Shown in pieces: positions 28,622 to 31,324 of a stretch of DNA of 64,000 nt (within the stretch, counting starts at the first letter, position 1; every line of letters starts with the position of its first letter). Under the pieces are notes generated by a model that was not told the DNA's origin, searched no databases, and saw nothing but the letters and a program-made list of their open reading frames with translations. The DNA lies in the NCBI GenBank assembly GCA_003104975.1, contig PQAM01000004.1, forward strand, positions 62,001 through 126,000, written 5' to 3'. The DNA comes from Candidatus Methylomirabilota bacterium. Its GTDB lineage: Bacteria > Methylomirabilota > Methylomirabilia > Methylomirabilales > Methylomirabilaceae. A program made the translations under genes and the position numbers.

Positions 28622-28690
28622 CTGTACCGGTATTGCAGGAACTCTGAGACGGTCCACAAAACCCGTTGACATCCTCCGAAACCCATGACA

Positions 28691-28737
28691 TGTTATAAGA
28701 CGTTCAGCATCTTTTAAGAAACGCAGCATCTTTTAAG
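28691..28737 (+). promoter_or_regulatory. Putative norY promoter with downstream direct repeat
   Basis: Extended -10-like TGTTATAAG at 28691-28699; a TTGACA at 28666-28671 is 22 bp away, too far for a standard -35. Downstream the 14-mer CAGCATCTTTTAAG occurs twice at a 19-bp interval (28705, 28724), a candidate operator. Speculative. Confidence 0.35.
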
Positions 28738-28764
28738 ACACAGATCGACGGAGCATACTGACAT

Positions 28765-29289
28765 ATGCGTATGACCCCAGAACTGACAATATTCGTCGTC
28801 TTCCTCATACTGGCGGTAGTGGCAATGAGCGCGCTGGTGGCTGTGGCGCTCACTGCACGTGGGCCGGCCGTCGAACAGTCGGCCGTCCAGAAGCCGGGAT
28901 ACCGATTGCGTACCGTCTGGTTTCGTGGATTGGGAGCAGTCGCGATTGTCGCGTTTGTGCTGTCCCTGCCCGCCTTCCCCTACCGACACCGTTCACAGGC
29001 GGCAGAGGCGCAGCATCACCCGGTGACCGCCCTGCAGTTTGCCTTCGTGATGCCGCCGGTACTCCCCTTCGATACCCCGATTGTCCTCGATGTGACGGCT
29101 ACCGATGTCAATCACGGCATCGGCATCTATGATCCGGACGGGCGGATCATTGCGCAGGTCCAGGCGATGCCCGGCTATACCAACCCGCTTCCGGTCGTCT
29201 TCAAGAAACCCGGGCAGTATGTGGTGCTCTGCATGGAATACTGCGGCATTGCCCACCATATCATGCGCGGCAGCTTCGAGGTGCGGTGA
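28765..29289 (+). CDS. norY: CuA subunit (NorY/CoxB-like) of a heme-copper NO reductase
   Basis: A 174-residue subunit II. TM1 about 7-30, TM2 about 56-72, then a short periplasmic cupredoxin domain. The CuA centre is complete: His117 (DVNHGIG), Cys156, Glu158, Cys160, His164 and Met167 (CxxxCxxxHxxM). It accepts electrons from cytochrome c or a cupredoxin. The domain is minimal (about 95 residues), as in ba3-type or sNOR-type subunit II. It overlaps the next gene (ATGG.. start at 29289) and encodes the first protein of a three-gene operon. Confidence 0.85.
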   Translation: MRMTPELTIFVVFLILAVVAMSALVAVALTARGPAVEQSAVQKPGYRLRTVWFRGLGAVAIVAFVLSLPAFPYRHRSQAAEAQHHPVTALQFAFVMPPVLPFDTPIVLDVTATDVNHGIGIYDPDGRIIAQVQAMPGYTNPLPVVFKKPGQYVVLCMEYCGIAHHIMRGSFEVR

Positions 29290-30797
29290 TGGCCGATACA
29301 ACCGGGCAGCTCACTCATCCGGCCCATCGCGATTCGGCAGCCGATCGGATCGCGAAGCGCGTCATGTGGCTCTATATCGGCTCCGGCCTGACGCTTGTGG
29401 GGGTAATGATTGTCGTCGGATTGGGGATGCGCATGGCGCAGGGAGGGTTCCACCAGTTCGATGCCGGTCTGTTCTACAAGCTCATGACCCTTCACGGCGC
29501 CGCCATGATGGTCGGGATGGCGCTGTGCGGAATGGGACTGCTCTGGTACCTGTTTACACAGGACGCGTCATTGAGCCCGACGACCGCGATCATCGCGTGT
29601 GCGCTGATCCTGATCGGCGCCGTGCTCGTTGCCGTCAGTGTCATGGTTGGTGGCTTCGCGGCAGCCTGGACCTTCCTCTATCCGTTGCCGTTCGTCGGTA
29701 CCTTTTGGCCGTCATGGGCGACAGGCGTCTTTCTGGCCGGGATCGCATGCGTCGTGTTGGGTTGGACGCTTTGGTGTCTGCAGATGCTGGGAGGCGCGCT
29801 GACACGGTATGGGGGTCTTCGTGGCGCGTTGGCCTGGGACCTGGTGTGGTCGCCCTCCAAGTTTGCCGAGAGCGGCCGGACACCCCCGCCCCCACAGGCC
29901 TTTGCGGTCATCGTCGCGGCCGTGGACGGGCTCCTTGCGGGGTCCGCCGGAATGCTGGTCGGGGTGGCGCTTTTCGTACGCTGGCTGGACCCGACCTTGG
30001 CACTCGATCCGCTCTGGGTAAAAAATCTGACGTATATCTTTGGCCACACGTTGGCCAACCTGACAATCTACATGCCGTTGGCAGCCGTGTACGTCGCCTT
30101 GCCTCGATACACACACCACCGACACTGGCATACGTCAGCGGTGCTGGCGGTCGCGTGGTGGGCTACTCTGGCGTTCGTGGCCATTGCGTATTTCCATCAC
30201 CTGTACATGGACTTCGCTCAACCGCGCCCCGTTCAGTACATCGGGCAGGCCGCCTCGTACCTCGCGGCGTTTCCGCCTGCAGTCGTCACGATATTTGGCG
30301 GCGCGCTTCTCGTCTACCGCTCCGGGTTCCGATGGACGCTGGGCTCGATGTTCCTCTACGTGGGCATGATCGGATGGATGGTGGGAGGGGTCGGCGCGCT
30401 TCTGGACGCGACCGTTGCCTTCAATATCTTCTTCCATAACACACTGTGGGTCGTCGCTCACTTCCATACCTACCTGCTGGAGGGCGCGTTCCTCTTCGTG
30501 CTGGGCTGGATCTTTCATTGCCTGGAGGAGCGCAGCGGCGCGGTCTCATCGCCGGCAGTTCGAACGCTGGTCGGTCTCGGGATATTCGGCGGGGGCGCAT
30601 GGCTGGTGCTGGGATGGTATCTTGCGGGCGCGCAGGGCGTGCCGCGTCGCTATGCGGTACAGCCGGCACCGGGAACGGACATAGGCTGGTGGGCATCGCT
30701 GGGCGGGATCATCCTGGTCGTCGGTCTGATCCTGTGCGCCATAGAAGCGATCCGACTCGCCCGCCGACCAGCCCGTCGAGAAGTATCGGCCGCGTGA
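29289..30797 (+). CDS. norS: Heme-copper oxidase superfamily subunit I lacking the active-site Tyr (sNOR-like, NorS)
   Basis: About 502 residues, about 12 TM helices. All six histidines are present: His69 (helix II, MTLHGAAMM), His253 (helix VI, FGHTLAN), His303/304 (helix VII, YFHHLYMDF), and His391/393 (helix X, AHFHTYL). In A- and B-type oxidases His253 is followed four residues on by the cross-linked Tyr (HPEVY); here that position is Asn257. That loss plus a CuA subunit next door fits the sNOR (NorSY) class of NO reductases rather than O2 reductases. Tyr261 and Tyr301 are nearby, so an alternative Tyr cannot be excluded. Start ATG 29289 overlaps the norY stop. Confidence 0.8.
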   Translation: MADTTGQLTHPAHRDSAADRIAKRVMWLYIGSGLTLVGVMIVVGLGMRMAQGGFHQFDAGLFYKLMTLHGAAMMVGMALCGMGLLWYLFTQDASLSPTTAIIACALILIGAVLVAVSVMVGGFAAAWTFLYPLPFVGTFWPSWATGVFLAGIACVVLGWTLWCLQMLGGALTRYGGLRGALAWDLVWSPSKFAESGRTPPPPQAFAVIVAAVDGLLAGSAGMLVGVALFVRWLDPTLALDPLWVKNLTYIFGHTLANLTIYMPLAAVYVALPRYTHHRHWHTSAVLAVAWWATLAFVAIAYFHHLYMDFAQPRPVQYIGQAASYLAAFPPAVVTIFGGALLVYRSGFRWTLGSMFLYVGMIGWMVGGVGALLDATVAFNIFFHNTLWVVAHFHTYLLEGAFLFVLGWIFHCLEERSGAVSSPAVRTLVGLGIFGGGAWLVLGWYLAGAQGVPRRYAVQPAPGTDIGWWASLGGIILVVGLILCAIEAIRLARRPARREVSAA

Positions 30798-31246
30798 CCC
30801 GACGAGGCACCCTGCAGGTCGTCGCCGCGGCGAGCGGTGCGCTCGCGTTTGTCCTTGCCGCTCGGTCGTTGGCGGTAGATGCCGAGCCCATCGACGTCAG
30901 AAGCCACCATCTGACTCATGCAGTGCTGATTCTCGGCGGCGCCGTATCGGCCTTGGCACTGGCCGCAGCCTATCCACGGCGGAATCCCTATTCTGAACAG
31001 CCGCAATGGCTCCTCCCCGCAATCCTTGGACCTCTCGGCGGTATGGTATTGATGATACCGACCCTTTACCCTTATATGAACGCTCATCCGGTAACTCACG
31101 TCCTCTCGCATTTCGGCCACATTATCGCCGGGTTTACGGCAGCCTGGTGCGGCGAGCGATATCGTGCCAGGGTCGGTTGGGCAGCAAGCCTGTTCCTTGA
31201 GGCGATGGCGGTCGGGGCCGCCTTCGGTTTTGGCGTGACGCGGTGA
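30794..31246 (+). CDS. Small four-helix membrane protein of the nor operon
   Basis: A 150-residue membrane protein with about four hydrophobic segments. Start GTG at 30794 overlaps the norS stop (GTGA), so it is translationally coupled. It has His clusters near membrane boundaries: DVRSHHLTHAVLILGG and NAHPVTHVLSHFGHIIAGF. These could bind heme or copper, suggesting an assembly factor or third subunit. Unlike SenC or CtaG it has no Cys pair. No family I can name. Confidence 0.75.
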   Translation: MTRRGTLQVVAAASGALAFVLAARSLAVDAEPIDVRSHHLTHAVLILGGAVSALALAAAYPRRNPYSEQPQWLLPAILGPLGGMVLMIPTLYPYMNAHPVTHVLSHFGHIIAGFTAAWCGERYRARVGWAASLFLEAMAVGAAFGFGVTR

Positions 31247-31250
31247 GTGG

Positions 31251-31324
31251 CGGGGCCGACGGGACTCGAACCCGCGACCTCCGGCGTGACAGGCCGGCGT
31301 TCTAACCGACTGAACTACGACCCC
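31251..31324 (-). tRNA. trnD: tRNA-Asp (GUC)
   Basis: 74 bases; acceptor GGGGTCG/CGGCCCC, anticodon loop CTGTCAC (GTC), discriminator G as expected for Asp, T arm GGGTTCGAGTCCC. CCA not encoded. Confidence 0.97.

What the first reader, a model, noticed from the sequence alone, without database searches (positions are those of the whole stretch)
28765..31246. CuA-type heme-copper enzyme with Asn in place of the active-site tyrosine
norY has all CuA ligands. norS has all six His but Asn257 where oxidases have the cross-linked Tyr, so O2 reduction by the standard mechanism is unlikely. This fits the sNOR/NorSY group of NO reductases. The third, His-rich coupled gene has no identified family and may define a new subunit. 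In an NC10-like organism, such an enzyme would matter for NO handling.
Basis: partly seen in the sequence, partly recalled or inferred. Interest (0 to 1): 0.7.

Follow-up and report, generated by a model that had tools for sequence, protein, structure and literature searches.

The report
Nitric oxide reductase with copper-loader-like partner
These three genes most likely make an enzyme that turns toxic nitric oxide into nitrous oxide; its altered active site is already known from related enzymes, but the small third gene turns out to be a distant relative of a copper-insertion helper protein and, in other bacteria, is fused to the enzyme itself or to an electron carrier.

Summary
At 28765-31246 (+) lie a CuA subunit, a heme-copper catalytic subunit with all metal-binding His, and Asn (codon 30057-30059) where O2 reductases have the cross-linked Tyr. 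The enzyme belongs to the sNOR (CuA-type NO reductase) group: 96 related proteins all have Asn there, while 39 aligned oxygen reductases all have Tyr. Asn is a published sNOR/CuANOR trait, and sNOR is already reported from Methylomirabilis, so the headline is not new.

New here: the window's enzyme is only 38% identical to M. oxyfera's sNOR and falls in a separate, widespread clade nested with Eremiobacterota, so it was probably acquired by horizontal transfer. Clade loci nearly always lack the SCO gene found beside other sNORs and instead carry orf3, a 5-helix protein with five invariant His and one Met. Profile comparison makes orf3, and 'orf1' of the classical norSY-senC-orf1 operon, remote relatives of the copper-assembly factor Caa3_CtaG. 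Orf3 is fused to the catalytic subunit in Actinomycetota and to cytochrome c in several phyla, so it is probably a dedicated copper-insertion module or true third subunit. An invariant Tyr lies one turn below the Asn. Activity is untested.

The parts
28666..28671 (+). TTGACA, -35-like element in an upstream block shared with four of five close relatives (not G026)
   Evidence: Alignment of six upstream regions; promoter role inferred
28705..28738 (+). Two direct repeats CAGCATCTTTTAAGA (28705-28719, 28724-28738) upstream of the operon; possible regulator site
   Evidence: Read directly from sequence; not conserved in the relatives' upstream regions, so weak
28765..29289 (+).
   Evidence: Pfam COX2 3.6e-7, T. 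thermophilus ba3 CuA domain 4e-11, hydropathy, dN/dS about 0.14-0.20
29289..30797 (+).
   Evidence: Pfam COX1 3.8e-40, His ligands, tree, AF2 of a natural orf3 fusion, dN/dS about 0.1
30045..30047 (+). His254, CuB ligand on helix VI
   Evidence: Invariant
30057..30059 (+). Asn258 (Asn257 from the ATG) replacing the cross-linked Tyr
   Evidence: 96/96 Asn versus 39/39 Tyr in oxygen reductases
30069..30071 (+). Tyr262, invariant in the Asn family; Leu/Met/Phe/Val in oxygen reductases
   Evidence: 96/96
30794..31246 (+). orf3: 5-TM membrane protein, Caa3_CtaG-like; invariant H38, H39, H42, M87, H102, H106 on the predicted periplasmic side
   Evidence: Family alignment 58/58 for these residues, AF2 pLDDT 93, hhalign to CtaG, dN/dS about 0.18-0.27
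31248..31324 (-). tRNA-Asp on the opposite strand, bounding the operon
   Evidence: ARAGORN

Best explanation
A membrane NO reductase of the sNOR group. Electrons from a periplasmic cytochrome c enter CuA in subunit II, pass to the low-spin heme and then to a high-spin heme/CuB site in subunit I, where 2 NO + 2 e- + 2 H+ give N2O + H2O. Without the cross-linked Tyr the site lacks the usual fourth electron/proton donor for splitting O2, which NO reduction does not need. The third gene, orf3, is a minimal Caa3_CtaG-like membrane protein whose five His and one Met cluster at the periplasmic face. It most likely helps load copper (probably CuB) into this enzyme and may stay bound as a third subunit. 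It takes the place of the SCO and orf1 genes of classical norSY-senC-orf1 operons. Shown: anatomy, conservation, clade, fusions, absence of SCO from the neighbourhood. Supported: remote homology to CtaG, horizontal acquisition. Inferred: NO reduction, direction of electron flow, copper role of orf3.
For: Asn and all His in 96/96 relatives, Tyr in 39/39 oxygen reductases, Asp in the M. oxyfera-type gNOR, Gln in an eNOR-like protein. CuA motif in 91/92 subunit II hits. Tree: window clade sister to the M. oxyfera sNOR clade (96.3/98), apart from A-family oxidases. Published: Asn = sNOR/CuANOR; B. azotoformans CuANOR with Asn identified with a purified NO reductase (PMC3475470); DAMO_0801-0802 called sNOR (PMC6094997). 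orf3 in nearly all clade-A loci, none in clade B or canonical loci; 25/58 fused to a CxxCH cytochrome c domain; fused to the catalytic subunit in Actinomycetota. CtaG similarity: hhalign 84%, score 41.4 versus at most 19.2 in 150 column shuffles; DUF420 0.5%. SCO beside 10/21 clade-B versus 1/46 clade-A loci.
Against: No activity has been measured for any enzyme of this clade, as far as the papers read show. One paper argues sNOR is a high-affinity O2 reductase. Monophyly of all Asn enzymes is weakly supported (4.2/71), and a Tyr enzyme (L197) branches next to them. The CtaG link is profile-level only: 47-64% in two runs of the standard tool, 84% after column trimming, and 20-column block shuffles reach 38.1, so local motifs drive the score. 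No structural match supports it. Bound heme rather than copper is equally possible for the His cluster.
Confidence: 0.62

Rival explanations
1. The enzyme is mainly a high-affinity O2 reductase (or dual O2/NO enzyme) that works without the His-Tyr cross-link, perhaps using the invariant Tyr262 or Tyr302 instead.
For: PMC6967387 argues this for N. europaea sNOR on expression and B-type kinship. Tyr262 is invariant in the Asn family, 96/96, and absent from the 39 oxygen reductases. Tyr302, next to the CuB His pair, is Tyr in 86/96 and Phe in 10/96.
Against: Every oxygen reductase aligned keeps Tyr at H+4; Tyr262 is two helical turns from the His, too far for the known cross-link (inference); the Asn-bearing CuANOR of B. 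azotoformans is assigned to a purified NO reductase.
Confidence: 0.2
2. orf3 is an electron-transfer subunit binding heme b (or copper) that passes electrons, rather than an assembly factor.
For: Invariant paired His on two helices; fusion to cytochrome c in 25/58 homologues and to the catalytic subunit; weak structural likeness to heme-b SdhD, Z 5.2, 90 residues, rmsd 4.2.
Against: CuA already provides an entry path; the CtaG profile match brings its own His set, proposed to bind a metal in assembly (PMC9145763); the structural likeness is at background level for helical bundles.
Confidence: 0.22
3. orf3 only assists assembly and is not part of the finished enzyme.
For: Caa3_CtaG is treated as an assembly factor; the counterpart orf1 lies beside SCO in classical operons.
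Against: Covalent fusion to the catalytic subunit in nine Actinomycetota sequences keeps it attached there.
Confidence: 0.35
4. The window's enzyme belongs to the Bacillus bNOR (CuANOR type I) family rather than sNOR.
For: Same Asn substitution and CuA partner.
Against: Published type I has 13 TM in subunit I and one TM in subunit II; here the family model has 12 TM and subunit II has two, the published type II anatomy. No bNOR sequence was in the tree.
Confidence: 0.05

Closest known systems
sNOR, norSY-senC-orf1 (ammonia oxidizers, Ruegeria/Silicibacter)
   Same: CuA subunit II then catalytic subunit I, Asn for Tyr, all His, invariant Tyr at H+8; a CtaG-like membrane protein in the operon (orf1).
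   Different: Window lacks SCO/senC; orf3 is a shorter, distinct CtaG-like protein; separate clade, about 35% identical to the Ruegeria protein.
Methylomirabilis oxyfera/lanthanidiphila sNOR (DAMO_0801-0802)
   Same: Same genus, same active-site residue, published as sNOR.
   Different: 38% identical, other clade, no orf3; the two types never occur together in the 15 genus genomes searched.
qCuANOR type II of Bacillus/Geobacillus (PMC3475470)
   Same: 12 TM catalytic subunit with Asn, subunit II with two TM and CuA, a 4-5 TM polypeptide already proposed as a third subunit.
   Different: Has SCO in the cluster; sequences not compared here.
Caa3_CtaG (PF09678)
   Same: orf3 shares the H-x3-H, P-x2-Y and H-x3-H motifs in register.
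   Different: orf3 is shorter (5 TM versus 7), lacks the C-terminal DQ motif, and falls below the Pfam threshold.

Membership tests
sNOR (CuA-type NO reductase) | Heme-copper His ligand set | tested here: met
   All His columns conserved
sNOR (CuA-type NO reductase) | Asn in place of the helix VI Tyr | tested here: met
   N258, codon 30057-30059; 96/96 relatives
sNOR (CuA-type NO reductase) | Subunit II with a CuA cupredoxin domain | tested here: met
sNOR (CuA-type NO reductase) | Groups with the published Methylomirabilis sNOR in a tree | tested here: met
   Sister to the M. oxyfera-type clade, 96.3/98
sNOR (CuA-type NO reductase) | Forms one clade with AOB/Ruegeria sNORs to the exclusion of Tyr enzymes | tested here: inconclusive
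   Topology agrees but support is weak, 17.5/78 and 4.2/71
sNOR (CuA-type NO reductase) | senC/SCO and orf1 downstream (usual gene order of norSY-senC-orf1; an accompanying, not a defining, feature) | tested here: not met
   orf3 instead; SCO in 1/46 clade-A loci versus 10/21 clade-B
sNOR (CuA-type NO reductase) | NO reductase activity | not testable with these tools
   Needs purified enzyme
sNOR (CuA-type NO reductase) | Absence of a proton channel | not tested
   Only a list of conserved polar residues was made
Heme-copper oxygen reductase (A/B/C) | Cross-linkable Tyr at helix VI H+4 or the cbb3 helix VII position | tested here: not met
   Asn at H+4; Val at 298, never Tyr in 96 relatives
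gNOR | Asp at the Tyr position | tested here: not met
   Asn here; Asp in the M. oxyfera-type gNOR L111
eNOR | Gln at the Tyr position | tested here: not met
   Asn here; Gln in eNOR-like L138
bNOR (CuANOR type I) | 13 TM subunit I and one TM in subunit II | tested here: not met
   Two TM in subunit II, 12 TM in the family model; published anatomy; no bNOR sequence in the tree
Caa3_CtaG (orf3) | Profile similarity with His motifs in register | tested here: met
   hhalign 84%, score 41.4 versus max 19.2 shuffled; 64% and 47% in standard runs
Caa3_CtaG (orf3) | Pfam PF09678 gathering threshold and 7 TM | tested here: not met
   No PF09678 hit for orf3 itself; one family member at E 0.029; 5 TM. 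Hence called CtaG-like, not CtaG
CtaM/DUF420 (orf3) | Profile similarity | tested here: not met
   0.5%, score 14.8, shuffled max 14.7

The most novel reading that the evidence does not exclude
orf3 is a permanent third subunit: a CtaG-like metal-binding module built into an NO reductase clade, fused to the catalytic subunit or to cytochrome c in some lineages, which loads CuB or relays electrons in place, making these enzymes independent of SCO.
Probability: 0.35. Interest if true: 0.75.

Novelty: new variant of a known kind. Interest (0 to 1): 0.58.

Why it matters
How CuB is inserted into heme-copper enzymes by Caa3_CtaG is unresolved. A minimal CtaG-like protein wired to one enzyme, and naturally fused to it in Actinomycetota, is a compact system to test this. 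Linking orf3 and the unexplained orf1 of norSY-senC-orf1 to CtaG gives both a testable role. For NC10 methane oxidizers, which depend on NO as an oxygen source through NO dismutase, a second and horizontally acquired NO reductase bears on how NO is partitioned between O2 and the greenhouse gas N2O.

Tried and rejected
Pfam and NCBIfam scans of orf3: no family for the membrane part, only cytochrome c for the fused tails. Foldseek against PDB with the orf3 model: no match at E <= 0.001; VIA-align top Z 9.6 (113 residues, rmsd 3.1, transhydrogenase domain II), within background for helical bundles. DUF420/CtaM as orf3's family: rejected. A combined catalytic-plus-orf3 alignment (A3) misplaced the separate orf3 rows and was dropped. 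The fusion model's match to the fused subunit I/III of caa3 oxidase, 2yev (Z 32.3, rmsd 3.5, 486 aligned, range to residue 677), hinted at a subunit III-like position but few extra residues align, so it is not used. A first full-set tree hit the time limit without supports; a 62-taxon tree was used. The upstream direct repeats were not conserved. One paper sought by DOI, the 2024 PNAS study I know as the main sNOR/eNOR survey, is not held. No Bacillus bNOR sequence was obtained.

Full report
WHAT IS THERE. Three overlapping + strand genes at 28765-31246: a 174-aa CuA subunit with two N-terminal TM helices, a 502-aa heme-copper catalytic subunit and a 150-aa membrane protein, orf3. The operon is followed by tRNA-Asp, tRNA-Val and tmRNA on the other strand. 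All three genes are under purifying selection against two relatives, dN/dS about 0.1-0.27.

ACTIVE SITE. Subunit I matches COX1 at 3.8e-40 and has every His ligand. At H254+4, where oxidases carry the cross-linked Tyr, it has Asn (codon 30057-30059). In an alignment of 139 heme-copper proteins, 96 have Asn, all 96 with all seven His columns. Thirty-nine oxygen reductases, including ba3-type and the genome's own three A-family oxidases, have Tyr. The M. oxyfera-type gNOR has Asp and an eNOR-like protein Gln. This reproduces the published table: N for sNOR and CuANOR, Q for eNOR, D for gNOR (PMC8756737). No substitute Tyr is at the cbb3 helix VII position (Val298; that position is from my own knowledge of cbb3). 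However, Tyr262, one turn below the Asn, is invariant in the Asn family and Leu/Met/Phe/Val in the oxygen reductases. I found no mention of it in the papers read. It is too far for the known cross-link (inference), but may take part in proton delivery.

FAMILY. In a 62-taxon tree the window's clade (A) is sister to the clade (B) holding the M. oxyfera-type sNOR (96.3/98). The AOB and Ruegeria sNORs lie just outside with weak support (17.5/78), and A-family oxidases far away. The AOB sequence comes from a genome with ammonia monooxygenase genes. Anatomy fits the published 'qCuANOR type II': 12 TM in subunit I, two TM in subunit II, Asn (PMC3475470). In the papers read, only the related B. azotoformans type I enzyme has been tied to a purified NO reductase. 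For sNOR, activity is only proposed, and one paper prefers an O2-reducing role. NO reduction here is therefore inference.

DISTRIBUTION. Of 95 genomes of the phylum, 11 have a homologue, all in the genus: six, the window's genome included, of type A (relatives 86-89% identical to the window) and five of type B (39-41%); none has both. The type B genome G025 is a single contig of 2,752,854 bases, which I take to be M. oxyfera. Type A of Methylomirabilis nests with proteins from MAGs labelled Eremiobacterota (100/100; 62-64% identity), pointing to horizontal transfer. Genome G021, which has type B, retains a relic of type A orf3 (L025 1527-1685, 86% over 162 nt). It lies next to a block syntenic with the type A locus of G026 (80% over 1,336 nt), so type A was probably deleted there. 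The window's genome also has two NO-dismutase homologues (90-94% identical to the G025 pair) and a NorZ-type protein (86%), three A-family oxidases, and no gNOR match.

ORF3. Homologues lie directly downstream of, and usually overlap, subunit I in nearly all clade-A loci with enough flank, and in none of clade B or the canonical loci. H38, H39, H42, M87, H102 and H106 are identical in 58/58. AlphaFold gives a confident 5-helix model (pLDDT 93, pTM 0.88). By the positive-inside rule all these residues sit at the periplasmic side and the C-terminus is periplasmic (inference). This agrees with the cytochrome c domain fused there in 25/58 homologues and in six further Deinococcota loci. In Solirubrobacterales/Thermoleophilia-type genomes orf3 is fused to the C-terminus of subunit I, in nine sequences with the His set kept; the fusion models with pTM 0.85.

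ORF3 IS CtaG-LIKE. hhalign of the orf3 family with nine Caa3_CtaG proteins gives 84%, score 41.4, with H-x3-H, P-x2-Y and H-x3-H in register. Column shuffles reach at most 19.2 (150 runs), the reversed profile 11.7, parts of subunit I 15.3. The standard tool gave 64% and 47% on two alignments. Block shuffles that keep 20-column motifs reach 38.1, so the match rests on local motifs. DUF420/CtaM is negative (0.5%). The 'orf1' of Ruegeria and the AOB locus also matches CtaG (93.6%) and orf3 (86.1%). SCO lies beside 10/21 clade-B loci but 1/46 clade-A loci (sensitivity limited to one query). The window's genome has no Caa3_CtaG and no DUF420. Caa3_CtaG is needed for active caa3 oxidase and is only tentatively a CuB insertion factor (PMC9145763; PMC13344008).

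MECHANISM AND LIMITS. Cytochrome c to CuA to low-spin heme to heme/CuB, 2 NO to N2O, with orf3 loading copper or remaining as a third subunit. Fusion to subunit I argues for lasting contact; fusion to cytochrome c would place an electron donor beside CuA. Copper versus heme binding by orf3 cannot be settled by sequence.

VERDICT. The Asn signature and an sNOR in Methylomirabilis are known (PMC6094997). The separate orf3-bearing clade, its fusions, the CtaG kinship of orf3 and orf1, and the invariant Tyr262 appear new; searches of the held library did not show them, but most subscription papers are not in it.

Noticed in passing
L025 1527-1685 (genome G021): Relic of the C-terminal part of orf3 at the site syntenic with the type A locus of G026, in a genome that now has only the type B sNOR: a deletion scar of a replaced NO reductase.
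   Followed up: yes
L121 6931-7497 and L183 3671-4237: The unexplained orf1 of the classical norSY-senC-orf1 operon is itself CtaG-like by profile comparison (93.6%).
   Followed up: partly
window 28705-28738: Two perfect 15-base direct repeats CAGCATCTTTTAAGA upstream of the operon, not conserved in the close relatives; could be a regulator site.
   Followed up: partly
G000:C10:600875-602203 (L002): The genome has a third A-family oxidase of the SHPAVY type (748-aa frame) for which the M. oxyfera-like genome G025 shows no strong counterpart.
   Followed up: no
L035, L041, L080 (FW021_bin.48): One groundwater MAG carries three copies of the clade-A catalytic gene on different contigs.
   Followed up: no
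L197: An actinobacterial Tyr-bearing oxidase branches next to the Asn family and may mark the oxidase ancestor of sNOR.
   Followed up: no
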